Source: Hypholoma sublateritium FD-334 SS-4
Lineage: Eukaryota > Basidiomycota > Agaricomycetes > Agaricales > Strophariaceae
Assembly (NCBI GenBank): GCA_000827495.1
Contig: KN817534.1
Span: 322,653 to 386,652, forward strand
Reading direction: 5' to 3'
DNA length: 64,000 bases
The position numbers were made by a program, and so were the translations under genes. The first letter of the stretch is position 1. Each line of letters begins with the position of its first letter. The notes under the pieces are model-generated. The model was not told the origin of the DNA and did no database searches. It saw nothing but the letters and a program-made list of their open reading frames with translations. Positions 14,410-54,841 of this stretch are shown here, piece by piece.

Positions 14410-15816
14410 TTAATTTTGAGCAACTTCGCGCGCATCGAGCGCGGTGACCTCCCGCGCGAAGTCCTGGAAGTCTTGGTCGATGTCCGCGTCGGAGCCGAGG
14501 ATGCGATGCAGTGCTCTGCCCGTCTGGTCGTAGTCGCACGCGAGGGAGTACATCCAGTACGCCAGATACGCGCCGACGTGGCCCGCGTGCGAGTCGTGCA
14601 GCGCCGCGAGGCTGCGCCCAGACGCAGGCTTCCCGCCCGCCACACCGCCCTGCAACTCGGCCGCCGCGAGCTCGCGGTTGAACGCGCGGTGCACGACGGG
14701 CCTTGTGTGGGCGAGCGGCGGCGGTGTCATCAGCGAGTCTTCAGACGACTCCGATGCCGCGTCAGAGTCGGCCTCGGAGAACTGGCCCGAGACCTCGAAC
14801 GTTGGCACCGCAAACGCCTCCCAGGGGACGGTGCCCGCGCAGTCCCAGTCGAGCACGCCGACGATGTGCCCCGTCGTGTCGACGAGGATGTTCTCGCTGT
14901 GTAGGTCGCCATGACGCATCGGGAACGGCCCGCGATCGTCCCGCTCGTCGACAAGTGGCATCATCGCCTTGCGCCACAGCGCGGCCACGAAGCGCCGTTT
15001 CAGTTGCGCGCGGTTGGCGGTGTCGCTTTCGTCCTCGTCGCCGGCCGCGATGGCTAATTGTTCGTATGCCTCGGCCTGGATTGCAAAGTAATCCTTCGCG
15101 GAAGTGAAGGGCCCAAGCCCGAAGTCTGCGCCAGGGCCAATGGACACCTCCCCTGAGTCGTCGATTGCGAATGACCCTATGCGATCGAACGTAATGCGGC
15201 TGAGCTGGACGTGGATGTCGGCGATGTCCCGCAAATAGCGCTGCAGAATTTCCCGCTTATTTTCGTCGCCCGCACACGAGTCGAGAGCATCTCCTGGGGA
15301 ATCGGGCCCGCACCCGGAGCTCAGCTCGTGGATGGCGATGCCGCAGTCTTCTATCGTGATCCCTCGAATGGAGGTCATGAGCACAAATGCGGGGAAGGAC
15401 GGCCCCAGCGGATTTAATGGAGACGGGTGGGCGTGATATGCGATTATTTCTGGAACAGGTATTGTTGTCCGCTGTCGGACGAGATGAAGCGCCGCCACCT
15501 CGTTCAGGATTTTGCGCTGAAGCTGTGCTGCAGTGTTGAAGTAGGCATCCATGGGGCGCATGCCGAATCTGATGATCCAGGAGGTGCCGTCCTCGAATAG
15601 GAGCTCATACACTAGGAATGACTGGCCCCATGTATAGTTTTCGCCGAGCAGTCTGCAGGGGAGGTGGCTTGGGTGAAGTGAAGAGGCGTAGGATTCAATC
15701 CTGCTATGATGCGGCTTGATCTGTTCGACCATAGATGTGACCCGGTCTGCGTATTCGGGCTCCATGATTTCGAGAGATGCTTGCGTATCAGGCCAATTAT
15801 CGCTAATAGCAGCCAT
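14410..15816 (-). CDS. Aminoglycoside phosphotransferase (APH)-like kinase
   Basis: A single-exon 468-residue protein of the APH/protein-kinase-like fold, common in fungi as small-molecule kinases with unknown substrates. The start at 15816 (MAAISDNWPDTQ) is preferred over the upstream in-frame extension because that extension has no family character. Seen in order: an N-lobe with LVYELLFEDGTSWIIRFG; the catalytic loop HGDLHSENILVD at residues 302-313, with the base Asp at 304 and the metal-binding Asn at 309; and the metal-binding DWD at 323-325 (VLDWDCAGTVPWEAFAVP). An insert rich in Asp/Ser/Glu (about 345-365) interrupts the C-lobe. Bacterial antibiotic resistance is not implied. Confidence 0.82.
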   Translation of the reverse strand: MAAISDNWPDTQASLEIMEPEYADRVTSMVEQIKPHHSRIESYASSLHPSHLPCRLLGENYTWGQSFLVYELLFEDGTSWIIRFGMRPMDAYFNTAAQLQRKILNEVAALHLVRQRTTIPVPEIIAYHAHPSPLNPLGPSFPAFVLMTSIRGITIEDCGIAIHELSSGCGPDSPGDALDSCAGDENKREILQRYLRDIADIHVQLSRITFDRIGSFAIDDSGEVSIGPGADFGLGPFTSAKDYFAIQAEAYEQLAIAAGDEDESDTANRAQLKRRFVAALWRKAMMPLVDERDDRGPFPMRHGDLHSENILVDTTGHIVGVLDWDCAGTVPWEAFAVPTFEVSGQFSEADSDAASESSEDSLMTPPPLAHTRPVVHRAFNRELAAAELQGGVAGGKPASGRSLAALHDSHAGHVGAYLAYWMYSLACDYDQTGRALHRILGSDADIDQDFQDFAREVTALDAREVAQN

Positions 15817-18800
15817 GGTAAATGAAACGGAGGTGATGGTATGAGCGTCTAACAAGAGAGATTCCAGAGATGATGGGAATGAAAAGAGATAGTGGGGCGA
15901 AAGAAAGCAGTCATTGCCCTTTGTGGAGGTTGTTGAACATTTTAGCTGCGTGTTTGGCGCGTGCATCATTTCCTGCATCATGCATGGCTATGTCAGGACC
16001 ATAATGTCTCCGACTGCGGTCCGCGTATTTGCCGGGCAGCAGTTGAGCAGCAGCCCGCTACCTCCCACTGCCCGCTGCCCGGGGTATAGATTTTTCGACA
16101 CATGTGTGTGTACTTGAGACCACAAGGCCGAACAGCGGTAAGATTCATAATGATCCTGTGAAGAGAAAGCATATTTATGCCACAAGAGGGGCCGGGCCGG
16201 GGAACCGCCTCATTCCATGACTAAGTTATGTTGGCTAATCATGAGGGCGCGGGAAAGTCCCTTAACCATTGCCTGATGAGGAAGGTGTCGGTGCTTCCCA
16301 TCAAACTTGACCAACACATCCACGAGACTTGACGAAAACCTTGCAAACATCTTGAACATCATTTTAACAACAGCTCTCTCCACTCAATACACTCTAATAA
16401 AATATCCTGGAGTCACCGAAATCCCACCCACACGTAATTCGAGCTTTTCAACTCCAAGTTCGCCTTCGGGGACGATGTTCATTGCTGACGAGGTGGCTTC
16501 GACGAGGTGTCCCCGGGCGGTGGCCCTCTGAGTTTTGAAGGTAAACATATGACCATTAGCTAGGCCATTTCAAGACAATCCTAACTGCCGTCCTGTCAGT
16601 CAACGGATCTCCGCTTCAATGTCCTCGGCGTGCAGTGCTGTTCAAACCAGAGATTCTGAATCAAGCCAAAACCAAGCGATCTGATAATACCCCAATCACA
16701 CTAGAGCTGCGCTTCGGTTCTAATCAAACGCCGTAGAGCGCCTATTTCCAACTGCTATGTCTTCGCACGTCAGACGTGGCCAAGCGTGCTTCATTATGCG
16801 TTACAGCCAACCTGCGCGGTATTGCCGACGCATGATCTCAGCTGTTTTCAGTCGATGGTATCGACTTCTCCGCCTCTTTACTCTCGCGGGAGCTGAGCCC
16901 GGTCAAATTGTAACCTTAATCCCCTGATTACACGGTGAGCCTTTGTAACTCGTGTGCTTAACCAAAATAACACTCGTTACTAGCATTACGACACTTCAAC
17001 GGGCACCAAAGTATTTGTCCCCGATATGGATTCACAAGTCTACCTTAATCCTGTCACCAGACCTTTTCCCGACTCGTTTCTCTACAGCGTGGGCTTATAT
17101 ACGTGACAGCTTTAATATTTCCCGGTTCTTCTAGTCCGTCTGATTCGTGGATGGCTATCCTCTGGCGACATCTACCCATCTTACTTCCCAGAAGCTCGGC
17201 ACGCAATCAGATTAAAATTTCGCATACCTCTTTGACCGGCGACGAACTAATGCGGCGAAAAAAGGAGTAATATCACAACGTCAGGCCTTAATTCCATCAT
17301 GATAGGAACCTCTCGTAAGTTGCAGGACCTTTTTTACCGGGCTCTCCTCAAAATGTACACTCAAATCTGGGCGTCATCAATGACCTGTATTTGCTTTCCG
17401 GATAACAACTATAGAAGAGTCGTCTTGCTCTGGGCCCGTTGCTGGCGTGTCGAAAGCAAGTTCCGGACCATTTTAATTGCGCCACACCCATGCTGCCTCG
17501 AAGGTCAGAGCTATTTCCGCCAGTATGCCTAATTTGTAGATATTTTCAGCCTCGTCGTCCGAGAATCCGGCCCTTCACTCCCAGCCAAAGTTGGTGGCTC
17601 CACGCCACGAGATTTCTCACTACGCGTTTGTCCCACTGGCCCTATTTTGCATCCTCGACGTAGGTACCCAAAATATCAGGCGGTCGGAACGCCCACGCTC
17701 ACTGCGCTAGAGGCCCTGTGTACACCCATCCAGCCACGCCCGACTGCCGAGGTCCTGGAGTCGAGAGTGAGCCGAGGCGTCTTCCCCTAGGGTTAGAACC
17801 CGTTCATCATTTGTCCTAAGCTGATAATCAGTACCAGAGATCTGAACCACGGCTACATACCCCGGAGTCCCGCGTTTATGGCACAGCAGTGACCCACGGG
17901 AACAGCGCCTGTCCGCCTCAAGATAACTCGAGGGAGCTTTCTGAGACATATCTACGTAAATTCTAATCTACTACTGTCATCGGCGTGCCGCGCGATCAGA
18001 TTCAACTCATTGATTATGTCTGTTCTCACCTTAATTTGTCGGCGGGAGGCAGTAAGTACTTGAGACATGTGCTGGTGATGTCCGAGTTGATGCCGGTCAT
18101 TTCGCAGACCTAAAGTCTTCCATTCTGCAGCGACGCTCAAATCCCTACATATTAGTTAATGTTATACTAGCTACCGCCTTGGAGCATGAACTTCACCTCC
18201 TTGGCGTTGCCATTCAAATAGAACGCACATTGTTAGTGGTCATTCGGCGGTCGGAGAACTTATGAAAAGGATATTTCGGAACGTATAACATATAACATCC
18301 TTGTTAGAAGCATTTTCATTTGAAATCTTTTTACCGCGATAATAATCCATCGAATCTGAGGCTACAAACTGGTGGTGTGAACAATACCCAAACAATGCCG
18401 GTTGTATTCTGTGGATTTATAGATTTCTCACCTGTATTTAATGAAGCACAACGTGATGAACATTAAAATGCAGAGTGATGAATGCTTGCTGTTGATGGAC
18501 TTAATTCCAATATAGCGGCGTATTTTGCGTTCCACAAAGCGCTGCCACCGTTAACAACGGGATTTTGGATCACCTATTTATTTAATCGGTGTTATCGCGG
18601 CTGTTTAATATTTAATATCGACGAAGAGATTCAAGTTCGAAGGTGGTCCAGGATATCTGCGTTGCGGTATGAATCGACTTCTATTCCGCGGCGTTTGTAG
18701 GCCCTCGCAAAATCTCTCTTCATTTGTCCGTTAATTCTACCACTGCTTGTATCAGTGTATTGATGAAAATCATTCATAGATTTTTGCGAGGGGGGCAACC

Positions 18801-23162: not shown

Positions 23163-26100
23163 TCAGACACCGGACGCCAGGATCTCCTTCGACACCAGTA
23201 TTCGGTTCGCGAGCGCAGTCAGGTTCGCATCCGCGACCACGACCTCCGCTGCGTACTCGACGTCGAAGATCTGTTTTACTGCCGCGCATATTCGCTTCGC
23301 CTGCCGCTCTGACCAGAAACTGAAGTCGTCCGGATCGCGCTGCTCCTGGTCGGTCTCCGGCGCACCCGCACCCGACGCCGACGCGGTGGCGTCTAGCTGC
23401 GTGTCCGCAATCTCGCCTTCCAGGGGTGCGGCCGCCGTGTGCGCCCCGCCGCCACTGCCGCTCGTGCCTTCACTAAGGGAGGGCTTGCAGGAAAGTGGGA
23501 TCAAGGAGGGGTCCGAGTCGAGGCACAATGGGACGATCTGCATCAGCGACTCGCGCACCGTGGCGAAGGTTACCTCCGACGGCCTATCCACTGAAAGATA
23601 GTCAGACGTGGTCAGTATAGTACAGCCAACCAAGACGCGATGTACAAGCCCTACCGTAGATCTCAAGAGGCCCGTCCATACTCATCACGTTATATTTCCC
23701 ATCGTGGTGGTAACGGACCTTCCCATGTACCGTCAGCAAAGCTCCCGCCGACTGCGATGACTGCACGCACCTCATACCGCCCCACGAGCCACGGTAGCGT
23801 GTTCCCCCCAAACGTGATCGTCCCCTTCTCCATATCGTAGTGCGCGCTTGGCCCACGCTCCATTCCCAGCGGCACGTCGCCGTCCCACTCCTCGCCGTGG
23901 ACAGGCAGCCACATACCCATCGACGACGTCTTCGTCACCTGTCGCGACTTGTTCGCACCGACCTACATTACTATAAAATTAGCCATCTGGCCAGCTGAGC
24001 GATGCGAGCGAGTCGTACCCGGTAGAGTCCTATCCAATCCTTGCGCGAATGCCCATGAGGCGCCTGCCATTTGACCGTAATCTTCTCGCCGAGGTGGTAC
24101 GCGAGGCGCGCGGTCGTCGGGCTGGGCACGACCGAGACGCGGTACTGCGACTTGTCGTAGGACGCAATGTCATTCGCGACGCGACTACTCGGCGGACGGA
24201 AATAGCACAAAACATAAATAGACAGCCGTCAGCACCGATCAACGAGCTAGCCAATCCGCGCGACGTACGTGATGACCAGCTTTTCGCGGGACTGTCTCAG
24301 CAATACCTTTGTATCTTGTACAACCTCCGAGATCCTTGGGGCGGCTACAAAATATCACAGCCACCATCAGCATTTGTCCCTGAGCCATACCACAGCCACA
24401 ATTGAGAACAGGCACTCACATCGCGCGAGGAAGTCCTCGACTGCATCCGCCGTTTCCTCATACACCTTGTCGAATGTGCCGATGACCTCGCGCGCGACGC
24501 GCTTCAGTTCGGGAGCATGCCGCGCGGCGCGCGACTCGAGCAGGCGCGCGTTGCGACTTGCGACGCCCTTCATTACCTTTACAAACCCGGCGTCCTTGCG
24601 TAACGAATCGCCGTACAGCTTCCGCATGTGGGGGCTGTAGGCCATGAGTCAGTCACACGCACGCAGCCAATCATTTGCGAGCCAATCAGGCGGGGGTATA
24701 GATTCGCAGGGCAGGCAGTGTGAAGGGGAAAGAAGGGGAAAGGGAAAATAGTACGTCAATTAGCGGGATGCGAGCAGAAGACGGAGATCGTGGGTTTTTA
24801 GGCACGCACTGTTCGACACTGCTGAGGAACCACCAGTTCGCAAGATGGCGGAGTACGGCGAGCGCGAGTACGAGCTTGCTCCCGCTAATGAGCGCGAGCC
24901 CGAAGTACGCCGCGCCGCCCATCGCCTCTGGGTTGTTCAGATATCTATGTGGGGCATAGCTGTGAGTTAGCGTCCGCCGACAGGAAAACAGCCACCACCA
25001 CGGCGGCCGACCGACAGTGATGTGTAATAGAGACGAACCGATATATACCCGTATACTCGAGGTGAGCGGGGAATTCTTCCATAAAGAAGTCGCCAAAGAA
25101 CCAGCCTTGAACACAAAACCAAGAAATTAGCACCGCCGTGGTTGCACACGCCCAGTGGTCCTAGACGTACCAAACACGCCAAGTACCTCGTACGACTCCA
25201 TTGTCGCCCAGACATGTAGCGCAATCAGAATCTACCAATTCACGCAACCAATCAGTACAAGATCGCGCCAGATATCGCAGGGCACGTACCAGGCCCAGGG
25301 TGTGCCGAAGCAGCTCGTTGCCCACCGTCCAATTATTTGGGAGGCTGTATGCTTTCCACGCAACCCCGATCACAGACACATAGGTCATGCACATGCTCAG
25401 ATTGAACAATGTCTTCCAGTTCGCGAACGCTTCGATGACCGCGTTCTGCCCGCGGTCGCTCTGGGCGTAGTCATAATGATAATTCTTCAAGTAGTGCCGT
25501 ACGAGGAACTTGTGATCACCCTGCGCGCGTAGCAGCAGCCCGAGCCCGAAATAGTGAATCATACACCACACCAGCGCGTGAGCAAAGTGCACAACGAGCG
25601 CAGTCTTCTGGGAGAACGCGGGAAGAAATACGAAGGCGAGGCCGTAGAACACAATCAAAACGAGCATCGCGTCGGTCGCGCTGTGAAAGCGAACACGCAA
25701 GTGTCGGTATGTCCGTAAAAATATGAAAACTCGCGAGCACGCACCGAAGTAAATCAACGTTACGCAACACTACCGCGTCGCGCCGGAAGTACTTATTGAA
25801 CAGGTCGTGCTGCGACACCACCGCGCGGCGCTGCGGTGACGCGTCACCGTCGGCAACAGCGCTGTCCGCTGAAAGCGTCGGTGCATGGCGCGTCTTCGCA
25901 CGCTTCTGGAACGCGCTGGGCTTGGGCGCCACCACGTCCTCGATCTCAGTCTCGAGCTCCGTTTCTGTCGCGGTGTCCGCCTCCGTAATCCCGGGCGTCG
26001 GTGCACGCGAGGTGCTGGCCTCGGGTGTGACATTCTGCGTAGAAGTGCTGCCGGACGACCGCTTTGCAGTAACGAGAGGTGTACGTTTGCCAATAGCCTT

Positions 26101-27300
26101 GCGCTGACCATACATACGCTCGATGTCTGCGTATGGGATATATTAATTGTACAGGGTCGTGCAGGAGCGAATAGAACTCACGAGGGTTTTCGAATAGAAT
26201 GAGGAATGCGAACTGCGCGGCGTGTCCAGCTAGACTCACGAAGAGCACCGCATAGCTGCCCACGATGAGCGAGAGGCCGTAGTACCCGGCATAACCTACA
26301 ATCGCTGTCAATAAAATTTCCTGTGCTATTTTTAGGGTGACGCACCGACGGAGTACATGGGATGTGGTGCAAGCTCGAAGACGCCGTCGAACACAAGCGC
26401 GCCGCGCTGGAAAAAGCAGTCGCCCCAGTACCAACCGTAGTCTTTGACGACATTATGCGCCTCGGTCTTGACCCATAAGTTGAAACCGATGAGCGCGATA
26501 CCGCCGAGCCACCTCATGATGTGTACGGCAGTAGACAAATCCTCCGGCACACGGAAACACGAGAACGCGAACATGCAATAAGATAAAAAGTCGCTGCAGG
26601 CGGGGATTAGCGCGGGAATATGTACATACGCGCCCGCACGCACTTTACGAGGATAACGTCAACTGCCTGGCGAAAGAGCAGCCATGCATTGTATTCGGCT
26701 GGGAGTTCCTGTGAAAGGACGCCGTTAGCTTGGACACTAGGCTTTTTAGTCAGACTCACGTCGAACGAATAGTCGCCACCCATCTTGTCGGCGAGTTCCC
26801 TGCGAATCCACGCACGCACTTTGGGGTGGCGCTTTTCATCCAACCAACCGAGGCGTTGCACCTCGCGCACAATCCACTTCTTCTTGCTCTGCTTGGTGAG
26901 TACCCAGCCAAGACCGCCGTCGTACGCTGCGCGCCAAAAGGCAAAGTAGAGGAAGAAAAACACTTGGGCAGCGCGGCGCGACAGAAGCAAGAAAATCACG
27001 AGCTGCAGACCCAACAAGCCGAGGTTAAGCAAGTCGAGGTGGCTCTTGCGATATCCCGGGTGAAAGAGGGTCGTCAGCACGTCGTGCGTCGTCGGAACGC
27101 GGAAAACTATGCGGCGGGTCAGTCAAACGTGGCGCTCGCTGCCCGCTACACATACCTTCGCCGCCGGGTGTCTTCCCCCAAACGACCTCCCCAACGTCTT
27201 TTCGCTCCTCTGCCGATAAGTCCGTTGTCATCGCTGGCGCATCGGCGTCGGGCGGAGCTTGCGGCTTGCGCTGGCGCAAGAAACCTTCGGTTGCGGGCAT
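23163..27300 (-). CDS. CHO2: Phosphatidylethanolamine N-methyltransferase
   Basis: Integral ER-membrane enzyme performing the first methylation of phosphatidylethanolamine toward phosphatidylcholine, using S-adenosylmethionine. Read 27300 to 23163, about 900 residues in many exons. The N-terminus [14 protein letters not shown] leads to [19 protein letters not shown] and several membrane helices. The first PEMT signature is [11 protein letters not shown] (near 26360), followed by [18 protein letters not shown] long charged loop (about 26100-25830) precedes the second methyltransferase unit with [19 protein letters not shown] (near 25000). A soluble C-terminal domain typical of Cho2 follows, including [20 protein letters not shown] and [15 protein letters not shown]. 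The stop at 23163 follows KEILASGV. Double PEMT units and this tail separate it from the shorter Opi3 type. The coding frame is GC-rich and looks intact. Confidence 0.92.
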
Positions 27301-28939: not shown

Positions 28940-30587
28940 TTACTTGAACTGTAGCCACGTCCAAATATCAGGATTTTAATTTGCAACAAAGGTCAAAAAG
29001 ACAACGTACGTTTTTGCCGTCGACCCACTTCTTGCCATTGATCTCAAGGTCCCAGGCAAGGGCGGCCTCGAAGAAGGCTTTGTCCTCAGCGTTGTTCTTG
29101 ACGTCGAGCTTGGTGTACGAGTATGACTCCCAATCGGGGGCGACCTCGACGACAGGCTGTGCCTCCTGGCCGCGGAGGATGAGGGTACCAGAGATAACGG
29201 AATCGCCGGTCGTGCCCAGGACACCGACCGAGCCGAAGAGGTACTTGCGCGACGCCTCAAGGCGGTTGAAGAATCCGGTGATCTGGTTCGAGGACATGAA
29301 GGTCTGCGTGAGCTCCTCGTTGTACTTGAAGTCAATCCTCCATGTTGAGAAACCCTCAGAGTCGAAGCTGAAGCGTGGTGAGGGTACATTATTGTGGGAT
29401 ATTTATCTGATGCTCACTTCTGGTAGAACCATTCGATGGCACCGCCGGCACCCCGGGTCTCCTTGTTAGAGTACGCGCGCTTCCAGTCCTCAAGGTTGAG
29501 GGTGGACTTGGGGAGGTCGTCAAGGGGGTTCTTGACCTTAGGCTCCTCAGGGACAAGGTTGTCGTCCTCATCATCGTCGGCGGCCTTAGCTTTGGGTTTC
29601 TTTTCCGCTTTCGGGGCAGCGGCGGGAGCAGGGGCGGCGGGCTTCTTCTCCTTGGGAGGAGGAACAAACTGGATAGCCTTCTCCGCGTACTCGGTCTTTC
29701 CGAAGATGTCAACAAGCTTGGGCTGGTTGACGACAGTCTCGAAGTTGCGGATGAGGTGGGGGAGCTTAGCGCGGAGCTCGGCATCGACGGTGAGTCCGAC
29801 AGCCTTCTGGATTAGACTGGCAATGAAGATGTCGGCGAGGGTGATGCGCTCGCCGACGAAGAAGGTGTGGGTGGAGAGGTGGGCATCGAGCGTGAGCAAA
29901 GTACGGGTGTGGCGTTCGACGAGGCCGGCGTGTGTCTGCACATGGCTTTAAATTTCAGGACATAGTGACACTGTACGCTCTACTCACGAGCTTGTTGTAA
30001 GCGTAGACACCTTTGCAAAGAGCGCGGACATAGTCGACGTAGGTGTCGACCTCGCTCTCAGCAAGGTGAATCCACTGGTCAACGAGGGCAGCGTCCTCCT
30101 GGGTGGCGCCGAGCAGGCCAGAATTTGGGGCGAGGGTTGCGACTACAGAGTAGTGAAAGATAATCAGTATGTGCGGTGCGGAATTGTTGTTATATTTGAC
30201 TGATGGATCGCACTACGATATCAGATGTTCCAGATTATCGTGCGCGCTGCCACTCGGACGTTCGGGCACAACGATCGATTAGATTCCTGATAAGGATGCT
30301 CACCGTAACGAGCGATGGCAAAACCCTCGAAAAGCTTGAAGCCGTTGGCGCCCTCCCAAGCAGGGATCTTTCCATGAGGGAATTTTGTCAAGAACTCTGG
30401 CTTCTTGTTGTCAACCATGTGCTCATAGCCAGTGGGAAGTGCGATCTCGATACCACCGAGAGCAGCGGCGGCCTTGATCTAAAGAGATATTGGTGTGAGG
30501 TTACGGTCTTCGGGAAGCGGATGATGAGCTTACGGCCTTGCCCTTGGCCTGGTAGTCAGTCGTCCAAAGAGTACCTGCAGGTGCCAT
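28940..30587 (-). CDS. Elongation factor 1-gamma (eEF1B gamma subunit)
   Basis: Structural subunit of the eEF1B nucleotide-exchange complex that recharges eEF1A during translation. Read 30587 to 28940. The start MAPAGTLWTTDYQAKGKA leads to a GST-like N-domain (FPHGKIPAWEGANGFKLFEG) and a GST C-domain (TFFVGERITLADIFIASLIQ). A Lys/Ala/Pro-rich hinge (about 29680-29530) follows, then the conserved EF1G domain (LDDLPKSTLNLEDWKRAYSN, FDSEGFSTWRIDFKYNEELT, ITGFFNRLEASRKYLFG). The final intron joins KKWVDGKN to FK and a stop at 28940-28942, giving the standard C-terminus. About six introns. A highly expressed housekeeping gene with no sign of damage. Confidence 0.93.
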
Positions 30588-31684: not shown

Positions 31685-31692
31685 TATATAAT
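31685..31692 (+). promoter_or_regulatory. TATA box, PX-GH18 copy 1
   Basis: TATATAAT lies 37 bp before the ATG at 31729. Confidence 0.5.
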
Positions 31693-31728: not shown

Positions 31729-34048
31729 ATGGTTTCCAGCGTTCTCATCGCGAAACACACCACCGCTTCCACCCCTCGTCCCCATATCCTCTACACTGTC
31801 CAAGTCAATGTGGGTGGGAGAGAATTGACCGCCCAGAGACGTTATTCTGAGGTATGCTAATCCAGGCTTGTTCTCTGGGCAATATCACACTGCTGATGTC
31901 TTCGCACAGTTTGTCGCTCTTCACGGTAAATACCACTGAATAAAATATTCATGCTCGAGCTCAATACATATTTTACTCAGCGACTCTCAATGATCCTTAC
32001 ACGCTTCCACCCAAGCGCCTCCTGGTCACCACCTTCATTCCATCCGCTTGGGTCGACGATGCTCTGATCGAAGAGCGCAAGGCCGGCTTGGCCGAGTATC
32101 TCACCGACATTCTGTCTACTCCCAAATACAAAGATCAGGCCATCGTCTTCGAATTCCTCACAACCCAGACGTCGGAACGCGATCAGAAATTCGACCTCGA
32201 GGATGCGCTGCCATCGACGCTCACCCGCACCCGGGCGCTCGCGCTTGCCGCCGACGTGAATGGCCTCACTACCGCCAGCACTATGATAGCGGGCGCGTAC
32301 TATCCCGACTGGGCAGCTACCGCCGTTCCCCCGGAATCGATCGATTTTACCAAGTTTGATCTTCTCTTTTTCGGTAATTCCGATTGTTTCTTTGTATATT
32401 GTGCACGACAACTGCTGAAGCGTTATTTCAGCCTTCGCCACCCCAACCTCCACATCTGGGATAGCGTTTGGGACTAACAGCGTTGCCATGCTGAAGCGCT
32501 TGGTCGCGGCCGCGAAGGCGAGCGGCTCCGGAACGCGCATTATCCTCTCCCTCGGTACGGTTTCTTCCGCTTGCGCCACCATCGGAGGAAGCTCACCTCT
32601 TTTTAGGTGGATGGGGCGGGTGCACTTACTTCAGCCAGGCATGCTCCACCCCAGCAAATAGGACTAAATTTGTCTCTGCCATTGCCACCGCGATCAACAC
32701 GTATAACCTTGATGGTGAGCATTGTTCCCCGCCAACTGTTTCCCTCAAGCTCATATTCTGACCTGCTCAGGTATCGATTTTGACTGGGCACGTTTATTAT
32801 ACGTTGGAGTGTGTGTGTGTGTGATACTTATCCTTGCGGCAGGAATTCCCCAACAATGCGGGCGCTGGCCAGCCCTTCAGCTCTGCGGATACTGCGAACC
32901 TTTTGCTTGTCTTCAAGGCACTTCGTGTGTCTCTCGGTCAGTTTTTATGGGCCTGTTGAACACAGATCACTCACGATTGAGCATTACCTTAGGCTCATGC
33001 AAAATCATCTCTGCCGCGGCCTCGCACACCCCGTGGTTAGGCGCCAACGGAAACCCACTTACTGATGTTTCGGCCTTCGCTGCTGTCCTGAACTACGTTA
33101 TGATCATGTAAGTCGATCAATGTACTCTCGGCGCAGCATCTGACACAAAATTGTCAGGAACTACGATGTCTGGGGCGCATCCGCTACGCCCGGGCCCAAT
33201 GCACCCATCGGTACGTGCGATTTATATCCCGCGCGCTATTCGATGATTGATCTGACACCGTTAACAGGCAATTTATGTGGTACTTCGACTCAACCGGTCG
33301 CAAGCGCCCAGGGTGGCTTCAAGGCTTGGACCACCGCCAAGTTCCCCGCGGCACAGGTACTTCCACGCCTGCTCTCGCGGTGCCAAGTACTGACACCATG
33401 CTAGCTCCTTCTCGGGCTGCCGCTCTACGGATACGTCTCAAAGAGCACGAAGACCGTGTTGACGGGGAGTCTGATGCCCTCTGCCGAGATGAATGTCCTA
33501 CATTCTGAGGAGGCCGTTGGCGCGGACGGCAAGCCCACGACGCACTTTCTCAAGGGCGGGCACGCAAAGGACATCGCGGATGTCAGCGCGCCCGCCGAGG
33601 TGTCGGCCACGGCCACGACAACGGCGACGGCGAACCTCACTGCGTACTGGGGTCAGCAGATCGCGTTCAAGGATATCGTCAAGGCGGGAGCGCTGGTGAA
33701 GAAATCGGACGGGAACTACGGCCAGGCGGGTGGGTTCACGATGGCGTGGGATAACTGCAGCGACACGCCCTTCCTGTACAACAAGGCGCAGACGACAGTG
33801 GTGACTTACGATGGTGCGGAGCGCCTCTCGATGTTTTTGATATTTTGCTGATTTGTTTGCTCTTAGACACCTGGTCGCTTGCTGACAAGGCCAAGTTTGC
33901 GAAGTCGAACGGCATGGCGGGGTGCTGCACTTGGTCCTTGGATCAGGTAAGTTTCCTGTGCCGCTCCGCTGTAATTGTGCTCATGCTCTGTTGATAGGAC
34001 GATGGCTTGACCCTGCAGAAGGCTATCTACACCGCCCTCGGAAAGTAG
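31729..34048 (+). CDS. PX domain-GH18 chitinase fusion protein, copy 1
   Basis: About 556 residues. N-terminus: a PX domain (about 1-105) with the phosphoinositide-binding RRYSEF at 37-42, the Pro-rich YTLPPKRLL loop and the basic helix IEERKAGLAEYL. From about residue 146 a GH18 barrel follows: IAGAYYPDW, SLGG (SxGG, 217-220), the catalytic DGIDFDWE (254-261, full DxxDxDxE), MNYD (330-333), LPLYGYVSK and the terminal-strand CTWSLDQDDG. There is no signal peptide, membrane helix or chitin-binding module. PX domains bind PI3P on cytosolic membrane faces, so the predicted site is the outside of endosomes or the vacuole; the substrate there is unclear. A 16-nt micro-exon (31910-31925) lies inside the PX part, and a GC-AG intron (32788-32842) splits the catalytic motif before its Glu. 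First of three tandem copies. Confidence 0.9.
32788..32842 (+). other. GC-AG intron inside the GH18 catalytic motif
   Basis: After the DFDW codons the intron starts gcacgt and ends gcggcag, 55 bp long, with a (GT)n run in the middle. Removing it restores E-F-P-N in frame; reading through shifts the frame. The sister genes have GT donors at the same place. Confidence 0.75.
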
Positions 34049-34131
34049 GTACCCGCGTCGATTTTTTCTCGGCTTGTGGCCGCAGCTTGTTAGGCCGGAC
34101 ATCGTAGCAGTTTCATGGCTTTCTATTGCGG

Positions 34132-34150
34132 CCCCCCCCCCTTTTTTTTT
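34132..34150 (+). repeat. Homopolymer tract C10T9
   Basis: A run of about ten C followed by nine T, 84 bp after the stop of PX-GH18 copy 1. Lengths in such tracts are prone to sequencing error. Confidence 0.7.
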
Positions 34151-34773
34151 GTATAACGTATATATCGTTTTAGTGTTGTAATTGTGTATTTAGTGTTTTA
34201 TATATGCCCTGTGCCTGTGCCCGTGCCGTAGCCTGCTCGATGAGTACAAGCTGGTACAAGTGGATACTTACACTGATTCCAGTTGAACTTTGCCGCTTCA
34301 GGATATCCCAACGGGGTAAAAGTCTAGGCGGCAACTTTCGCCAGCCGACGGTCTGCCACAGTGCCACTTCACCCAACTCCAAGCATTCATCATGACTTTC
34401 TTGTCTGAGGACGCGTCGCACGTCGGTCCTCAAGAAAGGGCTATGACTTTGGTTCGATCCAATGCCTCCATTTCGTTGCGGCCTCGACTGCCGATATTCA
34501 GGCTCTCAGGCCGACTGCTGCCTCTCAGACGAGTCATATGTAGCTCCCACTCACCCTTCGTGCTGCTTGATCTTACTATGTCTCACTTTGAACAACCCCA
34601 CCTCGCTCCCCGCTTCGCAGAAGCTCCAGGACTGAGCCCGCCTTATCAATGCTTCCCCGAGCTTCATCTCCGATTTCACTTCTGACTGCGCATGATGAGA
34701 CACAAACGAATAGCCAGCCTTGTCGAGCTGCACTGGTTTGAAATGCGGAGGGGACAAGACGCGGATGAGGCGC

Positions 34774-34779
34774 TATATA
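34774..34779 (+). promoter_or_regulatory. TATA box, PX-GH18 copy 2
   Basis: TATATA lies 42 bp before the ATG at 34821. Confidence 0.5.
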
Positions 34780-34820
34780 CCACCTGGGATACTTGCACCC
34801 TCTAGCTACAAGCTACATCC

Positions 34821-37061
34821 ATGATGGGCGCGTCTGTAACGATCACGCGGCACACGACGGCGTCGAAGCCCAATCTACACGTCGTCTACACTGTGGAGGT
34901 CGTCATGAATGGGTCCTGCCTCACGATCGAGCGTCGGTTTTCCGAGGTGCGTGCGATGTTTCTATGCGGACACGCGATGGGCACTGATGAGCGGTGCAGT
35001 TCGTAGCGCTGCACAGTAAATTTATTTTGTTCTCATGTTCGGCCGTTATCTGACCACAATTCTCTACAGACGCCCTGAACGACGAGTTCTCGCTCCCAGC
35101 CAAGCGCTTTCTGGAGACGTCCCTCTTTCCCTCCGCGTGGATCGACGACATGCTCCTCGCCGAGCGCAAGGCGGGGCTCGCGGAGTACCTGGCCGCTCTG
35201 CTATGGTCCCCGGAGTACCAGACCGCGCCCGCGCTGATCGACTTCCTCAAGCGCGACACGACGAACCCGAAGCTCGCGGTCGGCCTCGAGGACTACCTGC
35301 CGTCGACGCTCTCGCGCAAGAACGTGCTGGCGATGGCGCGCACCGCGTCTGCGAAGTATGAGCTCAACGGCGTGTTTGTCGCGTCGGCGTACTACCCTTC
35401 CTGGGCCGCGAGCAGCGTGCCGCCGGAGACGGTGGACTATGGCAAGTACGACATTGTGTTCTTCGGTGCGTGCGGCTTCCTTGCTGGCGGCGTGCGTTCC
35501 GCAGTGAATTGATTGTTCTCTAAATTAGCGTACGCGACGCCGAACTCGACTGCCACGCTTGATTGGAGCGCGGAAACGCGTGCTATTCTGCAGCGAGTGG
35601 TCAAGAGCGCGGCGGACAGCGAGGCTGCTACGAAAATTGTCTTAGCAATAGGTTAGCTTTCTCGATCTTTGAACATTGACCATTTAGTGACGTGCATTGC
35701 GCAGGCGGCTCGGAGGGTAGTCAATGGTTCAGCCACATATGCTCCACCACGACGAACCGGATCGCATTTGTTGCTACACTCGTAGCCACTGTCAAAGAAT
35801 TTGGACTGGCGGGAGTCGCTATCGACTGGGTGCGTGCATTCAGCTGTGTAGAGATTTATCTGTTGTTCATGGATGTGTTATCAGGAAACGCCCAATTTGA
35901 AGGCCTTTGGGAACCCGTACTCCCCTACCGATGCTGTGAACTTGCTGAAGCTTCTCAAAGCATTGCGGTCAGCCTTGGGCACGGAAAGCATTATATCGGC
36001 CTCTGTCGGGCGCTTGCCATGGATTGGCGAAGATGGATTTGCCTCCACCGATGTGTCCGAGTTCTCGGAGCAGCTGAGCTTCATCAACGTCATGTATGTC
36101 TTCATTCGTGGCCTGTACACATTTTCACTGAGAGGCGATCAGGAACTATGGAGCTTCTGCTACGTCGAGCCCATTGGCGCATTCATCACTAGGTATTTCT
36201 GCCAGTTTCTGTATAATTTAACACTAAAACGTTGTCCAGGAAATGCTGGCGATAATTCAAATGCACCATCAACCGCAGAGGGCGCGATCTCTGCATGGAT
36301 CGCCGCTGGCTTTCCGACTTCAAAGGTGAGGCCCTCGTTATTTGCAGATGTCAATTCATCCATGCTTCTCCAGATACTGTTGGGGATCCCGTTGTTCGGC
36401 TACGTTTACAAAAGCAGGAAGACCAGCCTTTCCTCAATCGACGTCCTCGACAGCTTCGCGAGCTCGACGTTTATCGGCTCGCACAAAGAAGTCACCCCGA
36501 AGCTGCTTACGAACGCATTTATATCTTCCAAATCACTCTCTGCATGGCGCGGGCTGCAGACGCCGTTCAAGTATATCGTCAAGTCCGGCGCACTGGTGAA
36601 GCGCTTTGATGGCAATTATGGGCAGGGTGATGGGTATACGCTTGGTGGGTCATTGTGCTCTGGCTTCATGGGGTGATGTGTGCTGATAGGTGCGTTGATA
36701 GCTTGGGACGATGTCAGCTCGACTCCGGTAAGTCTGGGTGATACTTTTCGTCGTATTCTGATCGGCGAACTTGCGTATCTAGTATCTATTCAACACTGAG
36801 AAGCGAACTTTAGTCGTGTTTGATAGTGAGTTTTACGTCAACCTGAGGTCTTTGATTATAGGCCTGATAACGGCGTTAGATACGCGATCGATAGCAGCTA
36901 AGGTGCACTTCGCAAAGGCGAGGGGACTAGGGGGATGTTGCACATGGTCTCTTGACCAGGTATGATATGATCTGTCCCCCACATAAACGAAGATGCTCAC
37001 CGATATCAAGGACGATGGAACGACACTCCAAGATGTCATCCATACCGCTATTGGCGAGTAA
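34821..37061 (+). CDS. PX domain-GH18 fusion protein, copy 2 (predicted catalytically dead)
   Basis: Same architecture and largely the same intron positions as copy 1. The PX domain is well kept (ERRFSEF across the junction, FSLPAKRFLET, LLAERKAGLAEYL). The GH18 barrel is complete in outline (VASAYYPSW, LLGIPLFGYVYKS, CCTWSLDQDDG), but its active site is altered. SxGG reads AIGG, the catalytic motif reads AGVAIDWE (first two Asp replaced by Ala, last Asp and Glu kept, 35809-35887) and MNYD reads MNYG. The frame is open throughout, with no stop or frameshift, so this looks like a maintained pseudoenzyme or chitin lectin, not a decayed gene. The usual 16-nt PX micro-exon is present near 35000. 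ATG 34821 or 34824 are both possible starts. Confidence 0.85.
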
Positions 37062-37470
37062 GTACGGCTTTATAGTGTTGTTGAGGAGCCCACTGTGCTG
37101 TGATTTACGAAAGTTTCTTGACGAATTACGACAGTTTATGACTAGGTTTGTATGATGTACATTATCTTACGGAATATATGGAAAATGGCTCGAATGTGGC
37201 ATGATCCGGCCCCCAACAAGCGTCTAATGGTGAATTGGATAGCATGGGTGGAGCCGTGCTCCCCGCTTCTGTAAAGCTGGGGCTTTGAACTCAACCATAG
37301 CACGGCGCCTGGGAAAGTGCGGGAAAGCCTGAGCATCCAAATCGGGAAATGAAGTTTCCTCTTCTGCTGTCAAAACAACGTCATACACGCCCCTATAAAA
37401 CGCGCGCGGGACAGCGCACGTACGCCAGCTTTTCTTTCCTTGCTTCCCCATAAAACGCACTTCAGATACA
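37062..37470. other. Intergenic spacer between PX-GH18 copies 2 and 3
   Basis: Contains the promoter of copy 3 (TATA at 37396). No gene was seen. Confidence 0.5.
37396..37402 (+). promoter_or_regulatory. TATA box, PX-GH18 copy 3
   Basis: TATAAAA lies 69 bp before the ATG at 37471. Confidence 0.55.
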
Positions 37471-39695
37471 ATGCCAGAGACCATGTCCCCCATCGTTTCG
37501 GTGGCGATTACCAGCCACACGACATCCTCGACACCGAGCCCGCACGTCCTGTACGTCGTCACCGTCGTCCGCGAGGACAACACGACAAGCATCGTCTGGC
37601 GGCGCTATTCCGAGGTGCGTTCCCGCCACCAAAAAGCCGCATATATGCGCCCAACCCATCCATTTTCAGTTCGCGGCGCTGCACGACGAACTCGGCAGCG
37701 CGTTCCCCTTCCCCCCGCGCCGAGCACTGGCGGCCGCGCTTGTGCCCGCCGCGTGGGTCGACGATGTGGTGATCTCAGAGCGCAAAGTTGGGCTTCAAAT
37801 GTTCTTGACCGATGTCCTGCACGATTTGCATCTCCGCGCGCGTCCTGAGGTGCTTCGCTTCCTCGCGCCGGATGCGCCGGGGAGCGTGATATGTGCGCCT
37901 GCTATGGTGTCCACCGGCGCGCCGGCATCATGCGCTACGGTGCGTGCGGGAGAGGATACGGCGCGCAATTATGTCGCGGCGTCATACTACCCGTCGTGGT
38001 CGGCGGATACGCTGCCGGCGCACGCGGTCGACTTTTCGAAGTTCGATGTGCTGTTTTTCGGTGCGCATCACCCTGAGTATCATATGCTTCATGCCACGCA
38101 CTGATATAGGGGTTTAAAGCGTTTGCAACACCCAACGGTGTGGCAGGTATCGACTGGGACAGCGGGAGCCAGGATGCACTGAAGAAGCTCGTGGCTGCCG
38201 CGCGGGGGAGCGGACATACGACGAAGATCGTGCTCTCTGTTGGTAAATCAGTCATTTAATTCATCTTGGTATGTTTTGCTGAATATATGCGCATGTAACC
38301 GATGTACAGGCGGTTGGGGTGGGTGCCACTGGTACAGCCAGGCGATGTCGACCGCCAGCAACCGGGCGAAGTTAGTGAACAATCTGATGGAGGCTGTTAA
38401 TACTTATGGGCTGGATGGTATGTTGTTTGTCTCGTTCTTTCCTGGTGGCAAAGTCTGACCTTGACGTGTACCCAGGGATTGACATTGATTGGGTACGGAG
38501 TTCGACAAATTGGGTTACCGAAAGCGTCTGAAAAAACTCCAAATTAATCCAAGGAATATCCGAATTCTCCGGGCGCAGGGAACCCTCATTCATCTGCAGA
38601 CTCTGCAAACCTACTCGAGTTCTTTAAAGAACTGAGGAACGAACTTGGTGAGCATATATGCGCACATTTCTGTCTGAAATAGGCCCTAAATTCCATCTTA
38701 GGTTCGGCGAAGATCATTTCCGCTGCTGTTACGCAGCTTCCCTGGTTAGATCAGAAGGGCTCACCACTCAAGGACGTCTCCGAATACGCAAAGTATATGA
38801 CATTCGTTAACATAATGTGCGTTGCCCAAGGTCTTCTATCCTTCACTTATGATAATAGTCATCGGGGCTAGGAATTACGACGTGTTTGATTCGTCTGCGC
38901 ATCCGGGTCCAAATGCGCCATTGGGTAAATTTTCGAGATCTTCTACTATCATGGGGGGCTATTGACTGTATTTGAAAGGCGACTTTTGTAAAACAAGCAC
39001 CCAACCCCAGGCCAACGCTCAGGCCGCGCTAGAGCAATGGGCGAAGGCTGGGATGCCGCCTTCAAAGATTCTCCTAGGCCTTGCCCTTTATGGATATGTC
39101 TCGAAGAGCACAGACAAGAAACTGACCGGGAGCTTCGCGCCAGCGAGTATCAGGCCACCTTTGGCCACTGGCATGCACCGCCGTCGCTTGCCAGACGCGA
39201 GGAAGACTCCCGCAATGGGAGACCTAAGCAGCATGTGGGGGCAGCAAATTTCGTTTTCACAGCTAATTTCCTCGGGCGCGCTTGTGAAGAATGCCGAGGG
39301 GAATTATGAAGCGCACAATGGTTATACTATGGGTATGTTCTTGGAATATTCTGATATGACGTTGACACCGACTTCGGATAAAATAGGATGGGATAATTGC
39401 AGTGATACTCCGGTTTGTGGATAGATTTTTTGGTTCACTGCGGAGAGCTGATGGGGATGTATAATTTGAAGTTTATATTCAATACTGCGCGGACGACTGT
39501 CGTTAGCTACGACGATACGTACAGCATTGCGAGCAAGACGAGGTTTGCGAAGAAATCAGGGATGGCTGGGTGCTTCAGCTGGTCGATGGACCAGGTATGT
39601 TGTGTCGTTTCTTGCAGAGAAAATGATAATAAACCGCGCATCAGGATGACGGAGTTGCATTGCATGATATAATGCTGGCAAACCTCCAGAAGTAA
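37471..39695 (+). CDS. PX domain-GH18 chitinase fusion protein, copy 3
   Basis: Third tandem copy. The PX part reads RRYSEF, FPPRRALA and ISERKVGLQMFL; here the micro-exon of copies 1 and 2 is fused to the next exon. The GH18 part keeps SVGG (SxGG), the full catalytic DGIDIDWE, assembled from three exons between 38411 and 38545, MNYDVF, LALYGYVSKS and MAGCFSWSMDQDDG. The C-terminus is DIMLANLQK. There is no signal peptide or transmembrane segment. The insertion before the last third is shorter and more basic (RRRLPDARK) than in copy 1. With copy 1 this is one of two copies predicted to be active. The introns around the motif use GT donors. Confidence 0.88.
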
Positions 39696-40554: not shown

Positions 40555-42349
40555 ATGGCACCCAGCACGCCCGCGAATCATGACCCCGCCCTCTCCCACG
40601 GCGCGCCAGCCCAGCCCGCGCAGCAACCCCCCGCGCAGGGCGGCGGGATGCCGCCAAACCTGTCCGCGGCGGACCTCTCGAGCATGCACCTCAACGGGCT
40701 CGACCAGAACCAGATCATGAATCTGCTCAGGTCGCTCCCGGGCGTCTTCACCAAGGTGCGTTGGTCTCCTGTGTCTTGTCTTGTCTCGCATTGGGGGGTG
40801 GGGTGGCGGGACGCTGCAGGGTGGGCAGGCAAGGGGAAGGGCGAAGGAGCAGAGAGGGGCGTTGGATGGTCATTTATATACACGTGACGAGCGCGACGGA
40901 GAGCACGAGCGCGATGGGGAGTCACGGGGGGCAGGGCGCCCGTGCTGGCGCGGAGGAGCTGGGGGCCAGCAGGAGAGCGGGCGGGCGTCTGCGGGAGGCC
41001 AGCGGCCAGCGGCGCTGTGTGGTGTGAGACGGCGGATGTCTCACCGCGCCCGTTGCTCTCGATCATGAAGACGAGCGGTCCCGGCGCGATTAATGTCGAC
41101 AAGCAGGGCTCGTTCTCGATTGAGGACATGCCGTACTACGACGACGACGCGACGGGCACTGAGCTCAGCGCCGAGGCTGATTGGCACATTCGCGACCCTT
41201 ATCCTTTTCATCTTTTTGTACTGGCTGGAACAGGCTCGCCCCGCCGCCCAAGTTCTTATTTTTTTATTCTCGTATCGTCTCCTCGCGTTGGACTGGCTGA
41301 AACAGACCCCACCACCTTCGCCTGCAGCCCTTTTTTATTTGTTTTCTCATATCATTTGCTTGCGTCGAACAGCGCTAACGGTCGCTTTATTTGCAGCTCA
41401 CTGAGGGACAGGCGACGCCCAAGGAGGACGCCGCGCAGACGCTCTCGAACCTCGCGCAGGCGCCGCCGCCGCCGTTTGGCGCCCCGCACATGCCCGTGCA
41501 TTACCAGCCTGCCGCGCCCGGGCTCCCGGGGATCAACGACCCAGGCCCGTCGTCGCACCCACGCGGGCCGCCGAACCTCGGGCAGCTCAGCGCGGTCGCG
41601 ACGATGCAGGCGGCACCGTCGCAGCAGCAGCAGCAGCAGGCTCAACAACAGGCCCAGCAGCAGGCTCAGCAGCAGGGACTGCCCCCGCCCGGTGGCGCGC
41701 ACGCGGACGACGGCGGCGCGGACGGGAACATGAGCAGCGGGAGCCCGTCGGGGAAGGAGGGCGGTGATGGCGAGGGTGGGCAGGCGTCGATCTCGGCTCC
41801 GAGCAGCGGGCGCCGTGGGGGACGCACGGCGGCGATGGGGAGCGATGAATGGAGCAGGCAGAGGAAGGACAATCATGTACGTTTATTTGATGTTATTTTA
41901 TACTATTTTATTGGCAGATGCTGACTACGGTGCAGAAAGAGGTCGAACGCCGGCGCCGCGGGAACATCAACGAGGGGATCAACGAGCTCGGGCGCATCGT
42001 GCCGTCAGGCTCGGGTGAGAAGGCGAAGGGTGCGATCTTGTCGCGCGCGGTGCAGTACATCCACCACCTCAAGGAAAACGAAGCGCGCAACATCGAGAAG
42101 TGGACGCTCGAGAAGCTCCTCATGGACCAGGCAATGGGCGACCTGCAGGCGCAGCTCGAGGAGATCAAGCGCCTGTGGGAGGAGGAGCGCATGGCGCGCA
42201 CGCGCGTTGAGGCAGAGCTCGAAGTCCTGCGCAGCATGAACGGGATGGGCGGTGCGCAGCCGAAGGACGAGGCGGGGAAGCGCCGCGCGGACGACGGTAG
42301 CGAGGAGACGCAGGAGGAGCGCGAGGGCAAGCGGCAGAGGACGGAGTGA
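40555..42349 (+). CDS. CBF1: bHLH transcription factor, Cbf1/USF type
   Basis: The C-terminal exon carries the basic region RKDNHKEVERRRRGNINEGI, followed by an HLH (INELGRIVP, AILSRAVQYIHHLKENEA) and a long Glu/Arg coiled coil. The E-R-R-R residues that read CACGTG are present. The N-terminus (MAPSTPANHDPALSHG) is Pro/Ala/Gln-rich with NQIMNLLRSLPGVFTK. A middle exon near 41068-41169 encodes an acidic stretch with SIEDMPYYDDDATGTELS; its donor is uncertain and may be GC. A polyglutamine tract lies at about 41620-41690. In yeast Cbf1 acts at centromeres and in sulfur and lipid gene control; here only DNA binding to E-boxes is supported. A perfect CACGTGAC site lies in its own first intron region (40881). 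Confidence 0.85.
40881..40888 (+). promoter_or_regulatory. CACGTGAC site within the bHLH gene
   Basis: This is the reverse complement of GTCACGTG, the preferred Cbf1 site. It directly follows TTTATATA in the non-coding stretch between the first and second exons, so it could serve an internal promoter or autoregulation. Confidence 0.45.
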
Positions 42350-53607: not shown

Positions 53608-54841
53608 ATGACTCCGCTGCCAGTTAACGTTCCCAGCAGACTACAACACATCGCTCATGTCGTGAGCGCATACGATAAGTGCCTGAGACTTGAGAAGACT
53701 CTTCAATCAACCATAGATAATGGGGGAAAAATTGGGAACAACCTGGTTTACGTCCGAATATTGGGTTATCTTATACATCATGTTCCCGGAGACCGAGGGC
53801 TGAAAACGGTCGTTGAAGAGATCAGCTCGTGCAATGGCGATTGCGCTCTTCTTACTGTCGGGCAGATGTATTACGATCACTATATTAGAGCGTGTAAGTT
53901 CATAAACCNATTCATTCACAGTCAGATTACCTGACGTGGTCCTAGTTCGAGCTAATAAGGGCACGGTGCCAACNCCCTCCAATCACGCATCTCGCCCTTC
54001 ATTCGATACGATGGCCGACATGATAAACGATACCTTGGTGGAGGCTCCTCAGTCGCATGCTACCGCGAAAAAACATGTCAGGNNTATACTTTCTTTCCTC
54101 GAATCGTCATTCATGCCGAATAAGTAGGCCCTTATCCGCGATGGTCATCGCTGTGTCATAACAGGAGCATATGACATACGATCTGTGAACGAAATCCGAG
54201 AGTTGAAAGAGAAGCTTATCTCCGACTCCAGCTTGCGGANGGGGCCAACGGATTGTGCGCATATATTCGCCGAGTCCACCANCTCGAGCATAGACTCGCA
54301 GTCAGCCAAACGGGATTATNCTGCAACGATGTGGGCAGTCATGTCTCGCTTCGGACACGACACCCTTCCAGACGATTTGAACGGTCCCAAAGTGCACCGT
54401 TTGGAAAACGTGATGACTATGGTTCCTGGTTTTCACCGTCTTTTCGACCAATTAATGATNTGGCTTGCTGCAATGGTGCGTCGATTAAACTTTGATTTTT
54501 TGACAGCTNTCACATATTGTGATACTCATCAGGGGGAAGAGAACAAGTATAAACTCGAAGCGGCAGATCCCTTAGNCTTACGTGGTTATCCTGAATATGT
54601 CACATTCACGACGCCAGATCGTGTAAAATTTCCTCTTCCATCTCCCACTTACCTCGCCATTCACNCTGCGTGCGCCAAAGTTGCTCATTTATCGGGCGCG
54701 GCGGAATGCATAGACAAGTTCTACCGGGACATGGAGGATGGAACGACCCTCACCTCAGACGGCACCTCAGCGAGCATATTGGAAGAGGCCATTCGGCAAC
54801 TTCAGGTTGTCGGATTCGAAGCCAAAGCCTGCGCATCATAA
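53608..54841 (+). pseudogene. HNH-nuclease family protein with an in-frame stop
   Basis: Family common in Agaricomycetes, with unknown role. Exon 1 starts MTPLPVNVPSRLQHIAHVV; an intron (donor gtaagt near 53894) joins YIRA to FRANKGTVP. The core follows: RDGHRCVITGAYD, DCAHIFAEST, WAVMSRFGHD, HRLENVMTMVPGFHRLFDQL, then after an intron NKYKLEAADP, YPEYVTFTTPDRVKFPLPSP and AKVAHLSGAAECIDKFYRDM. The stop follows EAKACAS at 54839-54841. An amber codon (TAG, 54125-54127) stands in frame just before ALIRDGHRC, where relatives have a sense codon. With eleven N bases inside the gene, this could also be a sequence error. If real, the HNH core is cut off. Confidence 0.75.

What the first reader, a model, noticed from the sequence alone, without database searches (positions are those of the whole stretch)
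31729..39695. Tandem array of three PX domain-GH18 chitinase fusion genes
Each gene splices, in phase, an N-terminal PX domain (RR[YF]SEF, Pro-rich loop, ERK-type helix) to a full GH18 barrel, with no signal peptide or membrane anchor. PX domains bind phosphoinositides on cytosolic membrane faces; GH18 chitinases normally act outside the cell or in the wall. The repeat of the same fusion in three diverged paralogues argues against a gene-model error. This suggests a membrane-targeted intracellular chitin or glycan-processing or sensing module that I do not know to be described, for example linked to chitosomes, endosomes or autophagy.
Basis: partly seen in the sequence, partly recalled or inferred. 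Interest (0 to 1): 0.88.

Follow-up and report, generated by a model that had tools for sequence, protein, structure and literature searches.

The report
Membrane-targeted leaderless chitinases of mushrooms
Three neighbouring mushroom genes each join a membrane-lipid-binding domain to a chitinase without an apparent secretion signal; the fusion is real and widespread in mushroom-forming fungi and has been reported before, but what it does is unknown.

Summary
Three + strand genes (31729-34048, 34821-37061, 37471-39695) each encode PX plus GH18 above Pfam cut-offs. In all three, PX end, linker and GH18 start share one exon. The g1 model equals a Hypholoma sublateritium database protein. The predicted PX fold starts at residue 4, leaving no room for a leader.

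The fusion is not new. Of 186 homologues listed, 179 carry both domains. One paper says a PX-chitinase of Phanerochaete chrysosporium was described earlier as expressed but chitinolytically inactive (citing Karlsson et al. 2016, which I could not read).

Not found in what I read: PX-pocket and catalytic residues are almost invariant; the three genes fall in three paralogue clades that probably stay together in other genomes; the g2 clade lost the cleft Asp in 9 of 9 homologues but keeps the PX pocket.

My preferred mechanism is inferred only: a leaderless chitinase carrying its phosphoinositide tether in cis, working like Ustilago Cts1/Jps1 unconventional secretion. A retained endosomal or vacuolar enzyme and a non-catalytic role remain open.

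The parts
31729..34048 (+). g1: PX-GH18 gene, 13 exons, 556 aa; catalytic motif DGIDFDWE and MNYD intact
   Evidence: 100% identity to P0001; motifs
34821..37061 (+). g2: PX-GH18 gene, 13 exons, 537 aa; PX pocket kept, GH18 motif degenerate (AGVAIDWE, MNYG), catalytic Glu kept
37471..39695 (+). g3: PX-GH18 gene, 12 exons, 532 aa; DGIDIDWE and MNYD intact; PX pocket Lys replaced by Arg
31981..32373 (+). g1 exon 3: end of PX, linker and first GH18 strand in one exon (PX Pfam match ends at aa 108, GH18 match starts at aa 152)
35070..35465 (+). g2 exon 3: same junction in one exon
37670..38060 (+). g3 exon 2: same junction in one exon
31837..31851 (+). g1 PX motif RRYSE (F42 is the first codon of exon 2, 31910-31912)
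32007..32081 (+). g1 PPKR, conserved hydrophobic loop with Trp70, and ERK of PX
32711..32845 (+). g1 catalytic motif DGIDFDWE, split by two introns; Glu261 codon at 32843-32845
35809..35887 (+). g2 degenerate catalytic motif AGVAIDW|E, split by one intron
36144..36152 (+). g2 Asn-Tyr-Gly where active paralogues have Asn-Tyr-Asp
38414..38556 (+). g3 catalytic motif DGIDIDWE, split by two introns
31685..31690 (+). TATA-like site 44 nt upstream of the g1 ATG
34774..34779 (+). TATA-like site 47 nt upstream of the g2 ATG
37394..37399 (+). TATA-like site 77 nt upstream of the g3 ATG

Best explanation
Shown: the locus holds three paralogous members of an Agaricomycete family of PX-GH18 proteins without an apparent leader. 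Inferred: the protein is made in the cytosol; the PX domain, with an intact pocket and a conserved aromatic loop, docks it on a phosphoinositide membrane (PI3P endosomes most likely, since PX domains mostly bind PI3P, recalled). Inferred: from there it is exported without the ER, at septa, hyphal tips or during autolysis, and its GH18 domain then cuts wall chitin. It would work like Ustilago maydis Cts1, a leaderless GH18 chitinase that needs the phosphoinositide-binding protein Jps1 and itself binds PI(4,5)P2, except that here the tether is fused in cis. g1 and g3 would be the enzymes; g2 would be a membrane-bound pseudoenzyme or glycan binder.
Against: A PX-chitinase of P. chrysosporium is reported as expressed but chitinolytically inactive (secondary source). 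No export, localisation, lipid binding or activity was tested here. Jps1 prefers PI(4,5)P2 whereas PX domains mostly bind PI3P (recalled), so the membranes may differ. The Hebeloma Jps1 orthologue did not restore Cts1 export in U. maydis. I could not obtain the Cts1 sequence, so homology between Cts1 and this family is untested. A membrane-binding PX domain is equally compatible with a protein that never leaves the cytosol.
Confidence: 0.38

Rival explanations
1. Retained intracellular enzyme: PX holds it on the cytosolic face of PI3P-rich endosomes or vacuoles, where it trims cytosolic glycans or is carried into the vacuole (microautophagy) to recycle chitin. This is.
For: No apparent signal peptide; PX pocket conserved; near-invariant catalytic residues imply a glycan substrate wherever it works. 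Other fungal GH18 proteins without a secretion signal exist, e.g. Histoplasma Cts3 and Cts7.
Against: Chitin is laid down outside the plasma membrane (established knowledge); no cytosolic substrate is known to me; a leaderless basidiomycete chitinase has been shown to be exported.
Confidence: 0.27
2. Non-catalytic protein: a phosphoinositide-anchored chitin or glycan sensor or scaffold (chi-lectin-like), with catalytic residues kept for binding.
For: Secondary report of chitinolytic inactivity for a P. chrysosporium PX-chitinase; the g2 clade has lost the cleft Asp in 9 of 9 homologues and in g2; the chitinase-like lectins Ym1 and CHI3L1 (inactivity recalled) are among the structural matches.
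Against: DxDxE and MNYD are almost fully conserved outside the g2 clade, including Phanerochaete sordida P0091; lectin-like GH18 proteins usually lose them (recalled).
Confidence: 0.2
3. Cytosolic endo-beta-N-acetylglucosaminidase that releases or trims N-glycans.
For: Weak profile similarity to EndoS (g1 E 0.019, g3 E 7.4e-5; 9 of 73 rows) and Endo H; one g3-clade homologue, P0143, has EndoS among its precomputed Pfam domains.
Against: All scores of the window's proteins are below the curated cut-offs; stronger matches to chitinase structures and to the ChiD profile; the motif DWE is chitinase-like (recalled).
Confidence: 0.1
4. Gene-model artefact: neighbouring PX and GH18 genes wrongly joined.
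For: g2 and g3 models were made by hand and no identical record was listed for them.
Against: The junction lies within one exon in all three genes; g1 equals a database protein; 179 of 186 listed homologues carry both domains.
Confidence: 0.01

Closest known systems
PX-domain chitinase of Phanerochaete chrysosporium (Karlsson, Stenlid and Lindahl 2016, Fungal Ecol 22:52-60; seen only through a passage of PMC8097845) and of Ganoderma boninense (PMC8097845)
   Same: A chitinase carrying a PX domain in a wood-decay Agaricomycete; expressed or up-regulated
   Different: I could not read the original and compared no sequence of theirs. Here a three-clade array with one pseudoenzyme-like copy
Ustilago maydis Cts1 with Jps1 (PMC12167484, PMC7358432, PMC6386918)
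   Same: Leaderless basidiomycete GH18 chitinase linked to phosphoinositide binding
   Different: The tether Jps1 is a separate protein without a canonical lipid-binding domain and prefers PI(4,5)P2; whether Cts1 has a PX fold is untested
RmChi1 chitinase of Rhizomucor miehei (PDB 5yuq, 5xwf)
   Different: The solved chain aligns with the GH18 part only (model residues 147-556)
PX domains of Sgk3/CISK and sorting nexins (PDB 4oxw, 6edx, 2ett, 2yps)
   Same: RRY, PPK and RK motifs align with the designed CISK-PX
   Different: None of the solved chains listed is a glycosidase; in the alignment with 4oxw our loop between PPK and helix 2 is longer and has a conserved Trp

Membership tests
GH18 (PF00704) | Profile match above curated cut-off | tested here: met
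   157.6, 163.9, 192.1 bits against 29.6
GH18 (PF00704) | Catalytic DxxDxDxE motif | tested here: met
   met in g1 (DGIDFDWE) and g3 (DGIDIDWE); not met in g2 (AGVAIDWE)
GH18 (PF00704) | TIM-barrel fold | tested here: met
GH18 (PF00704) | Chitin hydrolysis | not testable with these tools
   no assay; a PX-chitinase of another species is reported inactive
PX domain (PF00787) | Profile match above curated cut-off | tested here: met
   38.8-39.7 bits against 21.6; 73 of 73 chosen rows at E 0.001
PX domain (PF00787) | Three-stranded sheet, PPK loop, helices | tested here: met
   predicted strands 4-11, 21-28, 31-37; helices 39-49, 73-92; loop of low confidence; no PX chain among the 50 rows of either fold search, which GH18 fills
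PX domain (PF00787) | Phosphoinositide-pocket residues | tested here: met
   aligned with PDB PX domains; R38 180, K58 178, R79 185 of 186; roles recalled
PX domain (PF00787) | Lipid binding | not testable with these tools
   needs a liposome assay
PX-chitinases (as named in PMC8097845) | Chitinase-family protein with a PX domain in a basidiomycete | tested here: met
Cts1-type unconventional secretion | GH18 chitinase without signal peptide | tested here: met
   predicted PX strand starts at residue 4; hydropathy and TATA distance; no signal-peptide predictor was available
Cts1-type unconventional secretion | Sequence orthology to Cts1 | not tested
Cts1-type unconventional secretion | Export dependent on Jps1 or another lipid-binding factor | not testable with these tools
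   needs experiment
GH18 endo-beta-N-acetylglucosaminidase | Curated profile cut-off | tested here: not met
   EndoS g1 15.1 and g3 23 bits against 27, g2 not listed; Endo H 27.9-29.4 against 300 for P0001, P0121, P0143; but P0143 has a precomputed EndoS domain

The most novel reading that the evidence does not exclude
PX-GH18 proteins are the mushroom counterpart of the Cts1/Jps1 route: unconventionally secreted chitinases with the phosphoinositide tether fused in cis. The unexpected PI(4,5)P2 binding of Ustilago Cts1 could then reflect a diverged PX fold in its non-GH18 part, so one leaderless, lipid-tethered chitinase system would be ancient in Basidiomycota, with a membrane-bound pseudoenzyme (the g2 clade) evolved in Strophariaceae and relatives.
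Probability: 0.22. Interest if true: 0.77.

Novelty: new member of a known kind. Interest (0 to 1): 0.5.

Why it matters
Fungal chitinases are mostly studied as secreted or wall enzymes. A family conserved over many orders of mushroom-forming fungi that keeps a cytosol-facing lipid-binding domain and an intact active site needs a different topology: either a cytosolic glycan substrate or export without the ER. The second makes a concrete, testable link to unconventional chitinase secretion in Ustilago; whether a similar mechanism exists in a mushroom is a question its authors leave open. The g2 clade offers a natural catalytic-loss control kept beside its active paralogues.

Tried and rejected
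Rejected: gene-merging artefact (single-exon junction, identical database protein). Rejected: the idea that the fusion is undescribed. Considered and ranked lower: endo-beta-N-acetylglucosaminidase.

Led nowhere: Rfam (gathering threshold) and tRNA scans of the window (nothing). Ten paper searches used. Four that joined 'PX domain' or 'PX-domain' with chitinase or GH18 wording gave 0, 2, 0 and 0 papers; PX domain plus chitinase alone gave 9, of which only PMC8097845 has a title on a basidiomycete, and I opened only that one. The statement that no function is in print rests on these searches of an open-access library. The survey PMC8042737 holds no 'PX domain' or 'phox' in its main text. Both fold searches showed 50 rows, all chitinases or chitinase-like by their titles; no PX structure was listed, as the larger domain fills the list, so the PX fold rests on sequence profiles and predicted topology.

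Limits: homologue lists show only the best 120 of 382 (g1) and 120 of 407 (g3), all 65 for g2, each scored from at most 8000 candidates; absence outside Agaricomycetes is not shown. Most species were placed by recall; nine were looked up. 'Same contig' is judged from equal contig lengths in the lists. The tree is a quick one of 80 rows: 77 of the 186 listed plus g1, g2, g3 (g1 stands for the identical P0001). Signal peptides were judged by hydropathy and the start of the PX fold: 13 of 186 homologues have a 10-residue window of mean hydropathy 2.0 or more in their first 40 residues; over 19 residues g2 (1.69, at residue 242) and 6 of 186 homologues reach 1.6. In g2 that stretch falls where its orthologue P0121 has a predicted helix of the GH18 barrel (residues 239-256), so I do not read it as an anchor.
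Full report
What is there. The window lies in Hypholoma sublateritium or a very close relative: the spliced g1 protein is 100% identical over 556 aa to P0001, recorded for H. sublateritium FD-334 SS-4 (Strophariaceae, Agaricales). Three + strand genes run head to tail: g1 31729-34048 (13 exons, 556 aa), g2 34821-37061 (13 exons, 537 aa), g3 37471-39695 (12 exons, 532 aa). Pfam finds PX and GH18 in each, above cut-offs. Paralogue identities are 41-51%.

Is the fusion real? The PX match of g1 ends at residue 108 and GH18 starts at 152, while exon 3 of g1 encodes residues 47-177 without interruption; the same holds for exon 3 of g2 and exon 2 of g3. No splicing is needed to join the domains. Seven intron positions with their phases are shared by all three genes, and third codon positions are the least conserved in PX and in GH18 in every pair, so already-fused genes were duplicated and both parts were kept under selection. 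Of 186 distinct homologues listed, 179 carry both domains in precomputed annotation; in my own scan of 73 rows chosen from them all 73 have both. Of the seven without a precomputed PX, P0007, P0030, P0061 and P0081 keep a PX-like start and P0111, P0138 and P0145 begin late; P0061 does match PX in my scan.

Leader and anchor. The predicted PX fold begins at residue 4 of g1, and no hydrophobic leader is seen in the first 40 residues (best 10-residue hydropathy 1.2, 1.6, 1.8). A TATA-like site lies 44, 47 and 77 nt upstream of the three start codons, against 37 such sites on the + strand of 64 kb, which leaves little room for an upstream leader exon. No signal-peptide predictor was available; 13 of 186 homologues exceed hydropathy 2.0 in a 10-residue window near the N terminus. 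The best 19-residue windows (1.49, 1.69, 1.39) lie at residues 280, 242 and 121; the g2 one passes the usual 1.6 (recalled) but falls within the GH18 part.

Three clades. A quick tree of 80 rows puts g1 on the side that holds the rows from outside Agaricales, g3 in a set of 29 rows (support 99; Agaricales by recall), and g2 in a long-branched set of 10 rows (support 100; Strophariaceae and relatives by recall). In the g2 clade the cleft Asp of MNYD is lost in 9 of 9 homologues and in g2 (Ser or Gly), against 174 of 177 other homologues that keep it; R38, K58 and R79 are kept in all nine. The clade is not uniformly dead: Glu261 and D259 are kept in 9 of 9 and D257 in 6 of 9; g2 itself reads AGVAIDWE. 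It is therefore a probable pseudoenzyme or an enzyme of altered use; the role of the Asp is recalled from other GH18 enzymes. Members of the three clades have equal contig lengths in Pholiota conissans (P0002, P0121, P0143), Agrocybe pediades (P0006, P0124, P0149) and Hebeloma cylindrosporum (P0019, P0122, P0144), and two have nearby locus tags in Psilocybe cf. subviscida (D9619_009056, D9619_009058), so the array is probably conserved.

Spread. Species looked up fall in Auriculariales, Gloeophyllales, Russulales, Atheliales, Gomphales, Geastrales, Corticiales, Amylocorticiales and Agaricales, all Agaricomycetes; Polyporales are present by recall.

Prior art. PMC8097845 (passages) says that a modular PX chitinase of Ganoderma boninense was up-regulated in the interaction with oil palm and that a PX chitinase described earlier in P. 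chrysosporium was expressed but chitinolytically inactive, citing Karlsson et al. 2016, which is not held. This removes the claim that the fusion is undescribed and weighs against a simple hydrolase. The intact motifs of Phanerochaete sordida P0091 would not explain inactivity, if that is the orthologue.

Mechanism. The nearest worked example is U. maydis Cts1. It lacks a signal peptide and is exported during cytokinesis. Its export depends on Jps1, a basidiomycete-specific PI(4,5)P2-binding dimer. Cts1 alone also bound PI(4,5)P2, unexpectedly to the authors, who further note a leaderless GH18 chitinase in H. cylindrosporum; the Hebeloma Jps1 orthologue, however, did not replace that of U. maydis. 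Tagged recombinant Cts1 is about 56 kDa, which I take to be more than a bare GH18 domain needs. I infer that PX-GH18 proteins do in cis what Cts1 and Jps1 do together; lipid binding, export and activity are all untested. The main rivals are a retained endosomal or vacuolar enzyme and a non-catalytic glycan-binding protein.

Verdict. The fusion is a known kind with a wide, strongly conserved family behind it; its function is open. The points I did not find in what I read are the family-wide conservation of both active parts, the three-clade array and the clade without the cleft Asp.

Noticed in passing
32788-32842: A GC-AG intron in g1 directly before the catalytic Glu codon, where g2 and g3 have GT-AG introns.
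   Followed up: partly
34821-37061: g2 lacks two introns shared by g1 and g3 at the same positions and phases (alignment columns 262 and 299), beside its degenerate catalytic motif.
   Followed up: partly
31729-34048: Cysteines at g1 residues 351, 495 and 533 are nearly invariant (90% or more of 73 rows) in a protein without an apparent signal peptide; if they form disulfides, that would argue for an extracellular life.
   Followed up: no
7128-8377: Minus-strand open frames with WSC domains and Ser/Thr-rich stretches, probably a wall-related protein.
   Followed up: partly
14410-15987: Minus-strand open frame of 525 aa with an APH phosphotransferase domain.
   Followed up: no
25161-27122: Minus-strand exons that look by recall like a phosphatidylethanolamine methyltransferase; Pfam found nothing in the two pieces tried.
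   Followed up: partly
29414-29947: Minus-strand exon of elongation factor 1 gamma (GST_C and EF1G).
   Followed up: no
41891-42349: Plus-strand exon with a helix-loop-helix DNA-binding domain downstream of the array.
   Followed up: no
54128-54841: Open frame whose translation holds several X, so the assembly has undetermined bases here.
   Followed up: no
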